DNA of 64,000 nt from Candidatus Hydrogenedentota bacterium (GTDB lineage Bacteria; Hydrogenedentota; Hydrogenedentia; Hydrogenedentales; SLHB01). Under the pieces are notes generated by a model. It was not told where the DNA came from, ran no database searches, and saw nothing but the letters and a program-made list of their open reading frames with translations. The stretch is from positions 124,001 through 188,000 of the forward strand of contig JAKPDK010000042.1 in the NCBI GenBank assembly GCA_029552745.1, given 5' to 3'. Below, one piece after another: positions 6,235-52,628 of the stretch. Every line of letters starts with the position of its first letter. Positions within the stretch are counted from its first letter, which is position 1. A program made the translations under genes and the position numbers.

Positions 6235-6311
6235 TGGTGGGCGGTGCGTGACTCGAACACGCGACCCCCTGCGTGTAAGGCAGGTGCTCTAACCAACTGA
6301 GCTAACCGCCC
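6235..6311 (-). tRNA. tRNA-Val (anticodon TAC)
   Basis: On the minus strand the sequence folds as a 77-nt cloverleaf. It has a 7-bp acceptor stem (GGGCGGT with ACCGCCC), a D arm with TTAGCTCAGTTGGTTAGAGC, an anticodon stem CCTGC/GCAGG enclosing CTTACAC (anticodon TAC, valine), a variable loop with GGGTC, a T arm with GTTCGAGTC, and an encoded ACCA 3' end. It stands alone between the macroglobulin gene and a repeat cluster. Confidence 0.96.
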
Positions 6312-6736: not shown

Positions 6737-6942
6737 GGGGCAACCACGGGGGGTGCCCCTGCACATGTTCGGAATAGCCCCATTTTGTCCATTTCGTCCT
6801 GGATGTCATTGCGAGGAGTGCCGCTAGGCACGGCGTGGCAAACCCCTCGGGAATCCAGGGATCACGCTGCCCGAAGTCCTCTTGCGCTACGCGGTTGAGG
6901 GGATTGCTTCGTCGCTTCGAAAACTCGCTCCTCGCAATGACA
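6737..6942. repeat. Composite repeat: 85-base shared block followed by REP-like element
   Basis: 6737-6822 ('ggggcaaccacgg...' through 'cattttgtccatttcgtcc') is nearly the same as 50196-50282. It runs directly into a 139-bp element at 6804-6942 that starts with TGTCATTGCGAGGA and ends with TCCTCGCAATGACA, with internal GGCACG..CGTGGCAA and GGGGATTGCTTCGTCGCTTCG arms. Other copies of this element lie at 11940-12083, 41880-42034, 52433-52577, 60363 onwards and 63782-63923. Decayed pieces ('ggcggcacttctcggaatgaca') continue to about 7045. Confidence 0.85.
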
Positions 6943-11642: not shown

Positions 11643-11939
11643 CCCGGTCACCTCCTTTTTTCTTTAAACACACATAGTCTGCCATGATGGGCAGCGGTTG
11701 CTTGAATTCTAACAAAACGGAATAACCATTTTCCAATACGTTATGTTCGCCTGACAACCTACACAAAATATACCGCTTATGCCAGACAGATTTTGCCTGT
11801 CCTGCATTGCCACAAACGGGTCATACGGGTTTAAATTACCTACCAAAACAGCCCTATCGCATGCAACTTTCTAACCGGCTTCAGAATATACTCGCGCCGT
11901 CAAAAAACCTAAGACACAATGAAGCCTCTCTTCCCACGC

Positions 11940-12083
11940 TGTCATTGCGAGGAGTGCCGTAGGCACGACGTGGCAATCTCCTTGTGAGAACGGGGAAATC
12001 CCACCTTCGCCCTATGCCCCTTTGCGTTGCGTGGTTAAGGGGATTGCTTCGTCGCTTCGAAGACACCGGTCCTCGCAATGACA
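11940..12083. repeat. REP-like 144-bp element
   Basis: A full copy of the element bounded by TGTCATTGCGAGGA and TCCTCGCAATGACA, with the internal GTGCCGTAGGCACGACGTGGCAA and GGGGATTGCTTCGTCGCTTCGA arms. It fills the middle of a 770-base gene-free stretch between acpP and ndk. The rest of that stretch shows nothing recognisable apart from the ndk promoter. Confidence 0.85.
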
Positions 12084-12285
12084 ACGCTCAGGGTACGGTG
12101 CGGAAAGAGATGGTATCTGCTAAGAAAATCGCCAAAGCGCGCATTACTGGTTACCAAAAGGAAATAGCATGTTTCCGCGATGCATGCAGATGAAAGGGTC
12201 GCTTTCTGGGACGTCGCCCGTCCCTTAGGATTTCCTGTCTAATTCTTCTCTTCGACCTCCGAGCGAATGTACATACGCGTAAAGG

Positions 12286-12315: not shown

Positions 12316-12413
12316 AGGTTTCCGCGTTCGCGGAATGCGTGACACATGCCTTTTGGGAACGGGTTTACAGTGACACCGCGTCGCGGTATCTGTCGAAAAG
12401 CGAAAGATCGTCG

Positions 12414-12866
12414 TTGATAGAACGCACGTTTGTCATGATCAAACCTGACGGCGTAGGTCGCAGGTTGATTGGCGAAATCATTCGCCGTTATGAACAAAAA
12501 GGGTTGAAGTTAATCGGGTTGAAAATGCAGTGGCTTTCGCCCGAACTCGTCGAGCGACATTATCAGTCGCACCGAGGTCAACCTTACTATGAGCCGTTAG
12601 TGACTTTCGTCACGTCGGGACCCGTCGTGCTGATGGTGTGGGAAGGTTACAACGCGGTTTCGGTTGTTCGACAGATAAATGGCGCCACAAATGCCTTAGA
12701 GGCAGACGTGGGTAGCATTCGCGGCGACCACGCGGTGACGGTTCGGTACAACCTTGTGCATGGGTCGGACTCACCCGAAGCCGCGCGTCGTGAAATTGGC
12801 TTGTTTTTCTCAGAGAATGAGCTTGTGTCGTATACCATGCCCGATGAGTCGTGGTTGAAATTGTAA
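12414..12866 (+). CDS. ndk: Nucleoside diphosphate kinase
   Basis: A 150-residue NDK transferring the gamma phosphate from ATP to nucleoside diphosphates through a phosphohistidine. The protein opens with ERTFVMIKPDGV (nucleotide-binding lysine), contains TSGPVVLMVWEG and INGATNALEADVGSIRGD, and has the active histidine at His116 in LVHGSDSPE. The family starts immediately before ERTFVM, so the TTG at 12414 is the best start. An in-frame ATG 25 codons earlier would add a tail the family lacks. No strong Shine-Dalgarno is visible before the TTG. It heads a plus-strand run with the small basic peptide, the DUF1844 gene and purA, a nucleotide-metabolism and translation grouping. Confidence 0.95.
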   Translation: MIERTFVMIKPDGVGRRLIGEIIRRYEQKGLKLIGLKMQWLSPELVERHYQSHRGQPYYEPLVTFVTSGPVVLMVWEGYNAVSVVRQINGATNALEADVGSIRGDHAVTVRYNLVHGSDSPEAARREIGLFFSENELVSYTMPDESWLKL

Positions 12867-12907
12867 TTAGGTCGCATCTCGTTAACACATGATAAGGAGG
12901 GAAGTGC

Positions 12908-12997
12908 ATGGCCGGCGGAAGAAAGGTTCGGCGCGCCAAAATTGCTAAGCACAAACGCAAAAAGAAACGCCGCGCAAATCGTCACAAGAACAAGTGA
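12908..12997 (+). CDS. 29-residue basic COX24/AURKAIP1-like (bS22-type) ribosomal peptide
   Basis: A tiny ORF (ATG 12908, TGA 12995-12997) with an excellent ribosome site, AAGGAGG eight bases upstream. The product has about 17 Lys/Arg in 29 residues: it starts MAGGRKVRRAKIAKHKRKK and ends with NRHKNK. The spaced pattern K.RR.KI.KHKRKKR...NRHK matches the short COX24/AURKAIP1 C-terminal domain. That domain is the basis of the mycobacterial ribosomal protein bS22 and of short homologues in planctomycete-type genomes. The likely role is binding rRNA in the small subunit. It lies 41 bases after ndk. Assignment is from pattern recognition, not from a search; another small basic ribosomal peptide such as bTHX is less likely. 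Confidence 0.75.
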   Translation: MAGGRKVRRAKIAKHKRKKKRRANRHKNK

Positions 12998-13169
12998 CGA
13001 CGATGCGGTGCTTTGGCTTGCCAATTGCATTCAAGAGGGACAGTCGGGTCGCCTTGTTTTTCGTAGGAAACGAGGCGTCCCGGCTTATGTTTCCAGTCCA
13101 TGTTGACCAGGACATAGCAACAAGTTCCCAAAATCGTGCAGCATAAATTAGGATTAAGGAGAAATTGCC

Positions 13170-13595
13170 ATGGCTCCCGATGATGAACCGAAAATAATCG
13201 TTGACGAAGATTGGAAAGCGCGCGTGCAGCGAGAAAAAGAAGAGGCTGCGCGCAAAGCTGCCCAATCGCAAGAACACGGCACTGAGTCCGAAGAAGAAGA
13301 GGAGCAGTCGCTTTTTTCTTCGTTGGTCGACCGTCTCGCTCTGGAAGGAGCCATGGCGCTCGGGTTGATCGCCCCGAAAGATACCAAAGAGGTAATGATT
13401 GACCTCAGTTTAGCTCAGTGGATTATCGACGTGCTGATGGATTTACGGGAAAAGACCCGCAATAATCTCGAACCGGAAGAGCAAGGAAAACTCACAGCTA
13501 CCCTTGCCGATCTGCAGCGGGTGTTTGTGCTACGTTCCCAACAAGTTCACGAAGCGATGTTAAAGAATGCCGACCTAAAACCCAAGAATCCATAA
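13170..13595 (+). CDS. DUF1844 domain protein
   Basis: A 141-residue cytosolic protein. Residues 1-55 are highly charged and probably coiled or disordered (runs of Glu, Lys, Arg). From about 55 the DUF1844 pattern appears: LFSSLVDRLALEGAMALGLI, then a helix with DLSLAQWIIDVLMDLREKTRNNL, and a final helix ending in LRRVFVLR-like sequence. Function of the family is unknown; it is found mostly in planctomycete, acidobacterial, delta-proteobacterial and related genomes. AAGGAG lies before ATG 13170. It sits 39 bases before purA and is probably co-transcribed with it. Confidence 0.85.
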   Translation: MAPDDEPKIIVDEDWKARVQREKEEAARKAAQSQEHGTESEEEEEQSLFSSLVDRLALEGAMALGLIAPKDTKEVMIDLSLAQWIIDVLMDLREKTRNNLEPEEQGKLTATLADLQRVFVLRSQQVHEAMLKNADLKPKNP

Positions 13596-16189
<2,594 letters not shown>

Positions 16190-41829: not shown

Positions 41830-42034
41830 AAACGTTTGGCACTGCATCGGGGAGGCAGACCTAGGCTGATATGCCCGCTTGTCATTGCGAGGAACAAGTC
41901 CCTGAGTGACAAAGCAATCTCCCCGTGCTTTTGTAGGGACGCAACGCGTTGCGCCTTGTCCTGTCCGCGGGTTATAACCCCTGATACCTGAGGGGACTGC
42001 CACGTCGTGCCTACGGGCACTCCTCGCAATGACA
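41830..42034. repeat. Complete composite repeat element (flank module plus REP core)
   Basis: The best-preserved full copy: outer module AAACGTTTGGCACTGCATCG..CCTAGGCTGATATG at 41830-41874, then the core bounded by TGTCATTGCGAGGA and TCCTCGCAATGACA (41880-42034). The core holds a nested 'gtagggacgcaacgcgttgcgcc' palindrome. The other full copies are 52433-52628 and 60363-60556, the first of these with the flank on the opposite side in window orientation. It occupies most of the 383-base gap 41814-42196. Confidence 0.8.
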
Positions 42035-49483: not shown

Positions 49484-49754
49484 ACCCGCGCACCCACCGT
49501 CGAACACTTACCCAGAACGGCCACGGAGTCGCCAGCTCGGGCCAGGCACTCCTACAGCACACGCGCCGGACCGCCTACGGCTGCTTCCTTCCGGACCTGA
49601 CCGGGTTTAGCGACGACGCGTTGAGTAGGACCCAACCGTCAACGCCACGTGCTCCGTACCTGACTAATGAATAAGGAGCCCTCGGGTGGGAATTCGACCT
49701 CGCTAAAGCGGATTGCGAGTACAGGACACCGCTAACTTCCCGTCTAGCGCGGGT
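49484..49754 (-). ncRNA. ffs: Large signal recognition particle RNA (Alu domain + S domain)
   Basis: On the minus strand the S-domain core GTCAGGTCCGGAAGGAAGCA is unmistakable (49577-49603 region), flanked by arms that pair as the 4.5S hairpin (about 49540-49637). Upstream lies a second conserved block of the large bacterial type: GCGCTAGACGGGAAGTTAGCGGTG split as a T-arm/Alu-like 5' domain, then CCTGTACTCGCAATCCGC and GAGGTCGAATTCCCACCCGAGG. The extreme ends pair (ACCCGCGC at the 5' end, 49747-49754, with GCGCGGGT at 49484-49491), giving a closed molecule of about 271 nt, the length of Bacillus scRNA. It guides ribosomes making membrane and secreted proteins to the membrane with Ffh. dnaX starts 42 bases downstream. 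Confidence 0.93.
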
Positions 49755-50195: not shown

Positions 50196-50303
50196 GGGCA
50201 ACCACGGGGGGTTGCCCCTACACATGTTCAGAATAGGCCCATTTTGTCCATTTCGTCCTGTTTGCATTGCGAGGAGTGCCTGCAGGCGCTCCTCGCAATG
50301 ACA
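50196..50303. repeat. Second copy of the 85-base block joined to a minimal REP hairpin
   Basis: 50196-50282 repeats 6737-6822 with few changes. It runs into a 41-base minimal element (50263-50303) in which the two outer arms of the REP core (TTGCGAGGAGTGCC and GGCGCTCCTCGCAA) are directly fused around TGCA, with the interior lost. Confidence 0.8.
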
Positions 50304-52432: not shown

Positions 52433-52628
52433 TGTCATTGCGAGGAGTGCCGTCAGGCGCGACGTGGCAATCCCTTTAGGTATTCGGTAATCATCCCAAC
52501 CTCTGTTACACGCCACCTTGCGCTGCGCGGTTATGGAGATTGCTTCGTCACTCGGAGACTCGCGCCTCGCAATGACAATAGAACGTATAAACCAATTGTC
52601 TATCTCCTCGATACCGTGTCAAAGGTTT
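52433..52628. repeat. Complete composite repeat element (REP core plus flank module)
   Basis: The core runs from TGTCATTGCGAGGA (52433) to CCTCGCAATGACA (52577), followed by the outer module in reverse sense (…CTCGATACCGTGTCAAAGGTTT, to 52628). It fills the middle of the 713-base gap 52057-52770 between the porin promoter and the DUF2007 promoter. Confidence 0.8.

What the first reader, a model, noticed from the sequence alone, without database searches (positions are those of the whole stretch)
12908..12997. 29-residue COX24/bS22-like ribosomal peptide next to ndk
A very short ORF with a near-perfect ribosome site encodes an extremely basic peptide whose KI.KHKRKKR..NRHK pattern fits the AURKAIP1/COX24 domain of the actinobacterial ribosomal protein bS22. 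It is easily missed in annotation and would be a further case outside actinobacteria.
Basis: partly seen in the sequence, partly recalled or inferred. Interest (0 to 1): 0.55.

Follow-up and report, generated by a model that had tools for sequence, protein, structure and literature searches.

The report
Unannotated ribosomal protein bS22 gene
A 29-residue, strongly basic reading frame in a Hydrogenedentota genome is a genuine, conserved gene that very probably makes the tiny ribosomal protein bS22, which gene-naming models miss, and relatives of it turn out to be common in several little-studied bacterial phyla.

Summary
In detail: window 12908-12997 (+) encodes MAGGRKVRRAKIAKHKRKKKRRANRHKNK behind AAGGAGGG, 41 nt after ndk, in a Candidatus Hydrogenedentota genome. 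The ORF is under strong purifying selection and occurs in 62 of 68 genomes of the phylum, next to ndk and DUF1844 in nearly all of 37 loci examined; of six genomes without it, five lack ndk and one breaks off inside ndk. Its nearest solved relatives are ribosomal bS22 chains (7jil, 8fmw). It fails the Pfam PF08213 cut-off and NCBIfam, but so does the 7jil bS22, so that proposed refuter is not valid. Homologues from Verrucomicrobia and kin bridge it to PF08213, mycobacterial bS22 and mS38, and both sequence subtypes follow hisG in other phyla. It is a new member of a known kind, not the first outside Actinobacteria. New here is the breadth: 59 of 59 Verrucomicrobia-centred and 55 of 58 Omnitrophota-centred genomes, none of 61 Limosilactobacillus- or 80 Magnetococcales-centred ones. 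Ribosome binding in this phylum is inferred.

The parts
12908..12997 (+). bS22-type ribosomal peptide gene, 29 codons plus TGA
12894..12901 (+). Shine-Dalgarno sequence AAGGAGGG
   Evidence: read directly; a core of 5 nt or more in 35 of 38 Hydrogenedentota loci, 4 nt in the other three
12339..12866 (+). ndk, nucleoside diphosphate kinase, upstream neighbour (this is the longest frame; my reading of the sequence puts the start near a TTG at 12414)
   Evidence: PF00334 180 bits; found upstream of the bS22 gene in 36 of 37 other Hydrogenedentota loci examined, not in L015
13043..13084 (+). RNA hairpin downstream of the gene, possible 3' end of an ndk-bS22 transcript
   Evidence: As a local window it beats 60 of 60 shuffles, but the whole 175-nt interval folds only weakly better than shuffles (z -1.71, 13 of 200 as good). 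A local hairpin with z <= -2 is found in 27 of 38 loci. No T-tailed terminator found
13170..13595 (+). DUF1844 protein, downstream neighbour
   Evidence: PF08899 54.6 bits; found downstream in 37 of 37 other Hydrogenedentota loci examined
13635..14936 (+). purA, adenylosuccinate synthetase, next gene
   Evidence: PF00709 625 bits; found within the fetched stretch in 23 of 37 other loci

Best explanation
The ORF is the gene of small-subunit ribosomal protein bS22 of Candidatus Hydrogenedentota. The product is a short, bent, basic helix that sits in the RNA pocket of the 30S subunit formed by 16S helices h27, h44 and h45, near the decoding centre, and touches the 23S rRNA in the 70S particle, so that it stiffens the top of h44 and adds an inter-subunit contact. 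Shown here: a real, selected, phylum-wide gene, and homology to proteins seen in that pocket. Inferred from published structures of homologues: the shape, the binding site and the stabilising role. Inferred from the layout: co-transcription with ndk and its own strong ribosome site for high output, with a hairpin as possible 3' end.
For: phmmer with the window peptide alone against the PDB gives 4 distinct sequences at E<=10: 7jil_5 (30S ribosomal protein S22 | 50S ribosomal protein L38 in the depositors' names, E 5.2e-4, gapless over 1-29), 8fmw_V (bS22, 1.1e-3), 9i5v_10 (AURKAIP1/COX24 domain, 0.056), 8a22_BC (mS38, 0.15). Hydrogenedentota-only profile A3: 8fmw 2e-6, 7jil 7.3e-5, 8a22 0.078, 9i5v 0.15. 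Composition control: scores to the 7jil, 8fmw and 9i5v chains exceed all of 5000 shuffles (z 9.7, 8.9, 8.2). Bridge: of five MGSIKK-type homologues three pass PF08213 (29.9-35.9 bits; the others 22.6 and 18.4) and one passes NCBIfam bS22; their profile A2 finds mycobacterial bS22, mS38 and 7jil; A3 against A2 97.3%, E 1.9e-11 for that one comparison. Both subtypes follow hisG on the same strand, in 13 of 20 loci outside Hydrogenedentota. Phylum 62 of 68 genomes; of the six misses five have no ndk match and one breaks off inside ndk at a contig end. Structures place bS22 in the h2/h27/h44/h45 pocket with a 23S H67/H68 contact (PMC10618245, PMC10085706, passages).
Against: No ribosome of this phylum has been examined and there is no expression evidence. 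The direct comparison with mycobacterial bS22 (residues 1-25) is not above shuffles (score 37, 1170 of 5000 as high); the link to it is only through intermediates. PF08213 10.9 bits, under the cut-off of 23; NCBIfam no match. None of five GRK/GKK-type homologues scanned passes either library. A peptide this short and basic carries little information, so the single-sequence E-values are modest. One locus (L015) has no ndk upstream within the fetched 1.5 kb.
Confidence: 0.93

Rival explanations
1. A basic nucleic-acid-binding or antimicrobial peptide that is not a ribosome subunit and resembles bS22 by composition.
For: Extreme K/R content; C. acnes bS22 itself inhibits bacterial growth and cell-free translation (PMC10085706, passages).
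Against: Position-by-position match to ribosomal bS22 exceeds all of 5000 composition-preserving shuffles for three solved chains; nearly always one copy per genome, 62 of 68 genomes, near-identical sequence; synteny with housekeeping genes.
Confidence: 0.04
2. Chance ORF or translated leader whose sequence, not product, matters.
For: Very short; lies between two longer genes; a local hairpin follows.
Against: Divergence mainly at third positions, 8441 synonymous to 1823 non-synonymous codon differences, start codon swaps that keep the frame; homologues in other phyla lie at other genes.
Confidence: 0.01
3. Independent (convergent) occupant of the eL41 pocket, an analogue and not an orthologue of actinobacterial bS22.
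For: Direct similarity to mycobacterial bS22 is within shuffle range; convergence has been proposed for eL41 and mS38 (PMC6582356, passages).
Against: Series of intermediates that align without internal gaps, profile link A3-A2, A2 to 33-residue mycobacterial and Cutibacterium-type bS22 at E 0.0016-0.0027 and to PF08213, and the shared hisG locus of both subtypes.
Confidence: 0.05

Closest known systems
bS22 of Bacteroidota and Borrelia ribosomes (PDB 7jil, 8fmw; that 7jil is Flavobacterium johnsoniae and 8fmw Borrelia is recalled)
   Same: Length 28-30, gapless alignment, invariant G4, K6, K11, H15-K16-R17-K18-K19, N24-R25-H26-K27 in alignment A1; GTG start in Borrelia, unannotated there, and GTG start in 8 of 38 Hydrogenedentota loci
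   Different: Starts MAGGRK and not MPSGKK/MPCGRK; gene lies beside ndk and DUF1844; no structure
bS22 of Actinobacteria (PDB 5o61 and others; NCBIfam NF047430)
   Same: Tiny basic small-subunit protein, linked through intermediates
   Different: MGSVIKKRRKRM N-terminus, 33 residues; direct similarity not significant; NF047430 does not match
Mitochondrial mS38 / COX24 / AURKAIP1, Pfam PF08213
   Same: Core K-x-KI-x-KHK aligns; 8a22 mS38 is among the four hits
   Different: mS38 is a longer protein in most species; PF08213 score below cut-off
eL41/aL41 of eukaryotic and archaeal ribosomes
   Same: Same pocket in published structures (passages)
   Different: Shorter unbent helix; homology not tested here, proposed as convergent with mS38 by one paper and as one universal family by another
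E. coli Sra, formerly called S22 (recalled)
   Same: Only the old name
   Different: Unrelated stationary-phase protein; recalled, not tested

Membership tests
bS22 ribosomal protein, subtype of 7jil/8fmw | Sequence homology to a bS22 chain solved in the ribosome | tested here: met
   phmmer E 5.2e-4 and 1.1e-3; profile E 7.3e-5 and 2e-6; shuffle control
bS22 ribosomal protein, subtype of 7jil/8fmw | Length about 28-34 residues, more than half K/R, no indel in the core | tested here: met
   29 aa, 55% K/R; no internal gap in alignments A1 and A4 (22 chosen rows, tails trimmed)
bS22 ribosomal protein, subtype of 7jil/8fmw | Conserved gene in nearly all genomes of the lineage, as a rule one copy | tested here: met
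   62 of 68 genomes, 37 of 38 of high quality, two copies in 2 genomes; of six misses five have no ndk match and one breaks off in ndk
bS22 ribosomal protein, subtype of 7jil/8fmw | Bound in the 30S pocket h27/h44/h45 of the organism's ribosome | not testable with these tools
   needs cryo-EM; known only for homologues
Pfam PF08213 COX24_C as curated | Score at or over the gathering cut-off of 23 bits | tested here: not met
   10.9 bits, E 0.45; the 7jil bS22 used as control also has no match, so this cut-off does not define bS22
NCBIfam NF047430 ribo_bS22 as curated | Score at or over 34 bits | tested here: not met
   no match; 7jil bS22 control also none; of ten homologues scanned only the peptide of L134 passes, 35.2 bits

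The most novel reading that the evidence does not exclude
bS22/mS38 is not a sporadic actinobacterial, Bacteroidota or spirochaete extra but an old bacterial ribosomal protein, core in whole phyla (Hydrogenedentota, Verrucomicrobiota, Omnitrophota), overlooked because it is under 35 codons, often uses GTG/TTG starts and falls outside Pfam and NCBIfam models; it was lost in lineages that gave the textbook ribosomes (Bacillota, Pseudomonadota), and mitochondrial mS38 descends from it.
Probability: 0.45. Interest if true: 0.62.

Novelty: new member of a known kind. Interest (0 to 1): 0.42.

Why it matters
It adds a ribosomal protein to the likely parts list of a whole uncultivated phylum and shows that the two naming libraries tried here miss a nearly universal gene there. 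The presence/absence map (every genome of the Verrucomicrobia-centred sample, none of the Limosilactobacillus- or Magnetococcales-centred samples) makes the question of where mitochondrial mS38 came from testable. It also warns that the E. coli and Bacillus ribosomes may not be a complete template for bacterial 30S structure near the decoding centre.

Tried and rejected
PF08213 over the whole own genome listed one chance-level match elsewhere (9.6 bits, E 7.6, contig 25) and not the window ORF, presumably because the loose first look passed over it. NCBIfam and PHROGs scans of the peptide: nothing. T-tailed intrinsic terminator after the gene: none found; a hairpin is there, but 11 of 38 loci lack one at z <= -2 and the whole interval folds only weakly better than shuffles, so it is offered only as a possible 3' end. 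Structure prediction was not run: the peptide has 29 residues and the tool takes 30 or more. Profile A1 contains the solved bS22 chains, so its PDB hits are circular and not used as evidence; A3 (Hydrogenedentota only) was made for that test. Direct homology to mycobacterial bS22 was tested and not shown. Weak or partial genome hits that I set aside as loci: L150 (Omnitrophota, E 0.04, a second hit), L140 (Theseobacter, fragment at a contig end) and the contig-end second hit of G001/G071 (L139); their genomes each have a full copy. The 8 of 59 include one hit with an internal stop, one at E 0.0066 and two more that cover only part of the profile. No search was made for companion proteins such as bL38.

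Full report
Where it is. The window lies at contig 31, 124001-188000, of a 4.36 Mb genome. The best record (L032) is titled Nitrospiraceae, but its contig length and bS22 position equal those of a genome in the window's own family (G010), so the title looks wrong.

The ORF. ATG 12908, 29 codons, TGA 12995-12997, with AAGGAGGG upstream. Neighbours on the same strand: ndk ending 12866, DUF1844 from 13170, purA from 13635. The gene is real by comparative evidence. With the peptide as query, 35 of 40 genomes of the family and order (own included) have it, one copy in all but one; with a profile, 62 of 68 of the phylum (own included), 37 of 38 at high quality. In 38 distinct Hydrogenedentota loci, of the 62 genomes, codon positions differ by 0.119, 0.080 and 0.486 per site; the flanks, compared without alignment, by 0.73-0.74, which is what unrelated letters give. 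There are 8441 synonymous against 1823 non-synonymous codon differences in 703 pairs; 14 loci encode exactly the window's peptide with 2-18 nucleotide differences between pairs. The start is ATG 23, GTG 8, TTG 7; a Shine-Dalgarno core of at least 5 nt is present in 35 of 38 and of 4 nt in the other three.

Synteny within the phylum. In 37 other Hydrogenedentota loci (L002-L031 without L004, plus eight further genomes) tblastn finds ndk upstream in 36 (not L015) and DUF1844 downstream in 37; purA is within the fetched stretch in 23. The six genomes without bS22 were asked for ndk: five have none at E 1e-10, and in the sixth the match ends 6 bases before the end of a 3169-base contig. The simplest reading is missing assembly, not gene loss, although real loss of both in those five is not excluded; one of the five is rated 97% complete.

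What it is. The window peptide alone, by phmmer against the PDB chains, matches 7jil chain 5 (30S ribosomal protein S22; also named L38 by depositors of one or more of its entries) E 5.2e-4, 8fmw chain V (bS22) 1.1e-3, 9i5v (AURKAIP1/COX24 domain) 0.056 and 8a22 mS38 0.15, and nothing else at E<=10. I recall 7jil as Flavobacterium johnsoniae and 8fmw as Borrelia; the Borrelia paper says that both organisms have bS22 (passages). A profile from Hydrogenedentota sequences only gives 7.3e-5 and 2e-6 for the same two chains, 0.15 for 9i5v. As the peptides are so basic I tested composition: ungapped scores to 7jil, 8fmw, 9i5v and the L135 homologue beat all 5000 shuffles (z 8.2-9.7); to mycobacterial bS22 (residues 1-25) they do not (1170 of 5000 as high).

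Why the database models miss it. PF08213 gives 10.9 bits against 23, NCBIfam nothing. Ten homologues were scanned as controls. Of five MGSIKK-type peptides three pass PF08213 (35.9, 35.8, 29.9 bits), two do not (22.6, 18.4), and one passes NCBIfam NF047430 (35.2 against 34); of five GRK/GKK-type peptides none passes either library, and the 7jil bS22 among them has no match at all. So the curated models cover the actinobacterial/mitochondrial-like subtype, and failing them does not speak against bS22.

Two subtypes, one gene. The genomes of the 80 purA relatives were searched with profile A1: 25 of 80 match at E<=0.05, five of them Hydrogenedentota (with G068, the one titled Nitrospiraceae), leaving 20 of 75 others. 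Judged by eye, their peptides fall in a GRK/GKK subtype (Omnitrophota, Theseobacter, NPL-UPA2, Raymondbacteria, one Planctomycetota, one unnamed bacterium) and a MGSIKK subtype (Verrucomicrobia, Kiritimatiellae, Lentisphaerae, PVC group, one record labelled delta proteobacterium, one unnamed bacterium). A chosen set of 22 rows, tails trimmed, aligns without internal gaps. The MGSIKK profile finds bS22 of 33 residues (mycobacterial and Cutibacterium type, E 0.0016-0.0027), mS38 (2e-5 and 2.6e-4) and 7jil (4.3e-5), and aligns to the Hydrogenedentota profile at 97.3%, E 1.9e-11 for that one comparison. Independently of the peptide sequence, hisG lies upstream on the same strand in 13 of the 20 loci and in both subtypes: L128, L129, L142, L143 of the first and L133, L135-L138, L144, L147-L149 of the second. 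The gap, from the end of the tblastn match, is 22-95 nt in twelve and about 185 nt in L143. Seven have no hisG match: L130, L131 (which has only about 480 nt upstream), L132, L134, L141, L145, L146. Pfam confirms HisG and HisG_C for four of these (L128, L129, L135, L136). I take the shared place as evidence that both subtypes are one orthologous gene, which in Hydrogenedentota lies at ndk instead.

Breadth. Phylum samples around a named genome (the tool tells no group there, so the names are from the record title of the centre; cut-off E 0.01): Verrucomicrobia AV42 59 of 59 (profile A2); with profile A4: Omnitrophota bin17 55 of 58, Planctomycetota 8 of 59 (one with an internal stop, one at E 0.0066), Geomobilimonas 17 of 59, the centre itself not among them, Limosilactobacillus 0 of 61, Magnetococcales 0 of 80. 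The last two serve as specificity controls, as the same query rang. An empty result with this profile does not exclude a diverged bS22.

How it works. Published structures place bS22 in a pocket of 16S helices h2/h27/h44/h45 with contact to 23S H67/H68, near the decoding centre, in Mycobacterium, Flavobacterium, Cutibacterium and Borrelia (PMC10618245 and PMC10085706, passages; PMC6133939, passages). In yeast, absence of mS38 is predicted to free h44, and it impairs initiation on COX1-3 mRNAs (PMC6582356, passages). The Borrelia paper lists its bS22 gene among essential-gene candidates, reports that mass spectrometry missed it, and predicts that more species will be found because the gene is short with unusual starts. 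I infer the same site and a stabilising role here. Transcription with ndk is inferred from the 41-nt gap. After the gene a local hairpin beats 60 of 60 shuffles in the window and reaches z <= -2 in 27 of 38 loci, although the whole 175-nt interval is only weakly structured (z -1.71).

What is known. bS22 outside Actinobacteria is in print for Bacteroidetes and Borrelia; one 2023 paper calls it Actinobacterium-specific in its discussion while citing Flavobacterium in its results. In the held open-access library I found no paper that joins bS22 with Verrucomicrobi*, hisG or Hydrogenedent*, and one joining bS22, ribosomal protein and phyla, whose passages speak of actinobacteria (PMC7005279). One paper with Hydrogenedent*, ribosomal protein and small protein was seen only in a listing (PMC7203096). 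No search joined bS22 with Omnitrophota, and subscription papers are not covered. Verdict: a new member of a known kind, with a distribution wider than I found in print.

Noticed in passing
window 6804-6942, 11940-12083, 41880-42034, 52433-52577; single arms at 50291, 60363, 63910: Dispersed element of about 139-155 bp whose inverted arms carry TGTCATTGCGAGG: 11 copies of the 13-mer, all exact, against 0.10 expected at up to one mismatch; arm pairing checked only for the copy at 11937-12086. Looks like a small non-coding mobile or REP-like repeat.
   Followed up: partly
L128, L129, L133, L135-L138, L142-L144, L147-L149: hisG upstream of bS22 in Omnitrophota, Verrucomicrobia, Kiritimatiellae, Lentisphaerae, PVC-group and Theseobacter records; in six of these 13 a TPR-like protein is found downstream, some only weakly.
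   Followed up: yes
   Followed up: partly
G215 contig 7, 53628-53714 and 53867-53953: A genome of the Omnitrophota-centred sample carries two bS22 copies about 150 bases apart with equal scores.
   Followed up: no
window 13043-13084 and downstream of bS22 in relatives: Local hairpin after the bS22 stop codon, z <= -2 in 27 of 38 loci, no T-tailed terminator in the window.
   Followed up: partly
window 49486-49752 (-) and 6235-6311 (-): Bacterial large SRP RNA (192 bits) and tRNA-Val(tac).
   Followed up: no
control genomes: PF08213 gives sub-threshold matches in Methanocaldococcus jannaschii and Sulfolobus acidocaldarius (one of three ringing controls was over the cut-off); whether these are aL41 genes was not looked at.
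   Followed up: no
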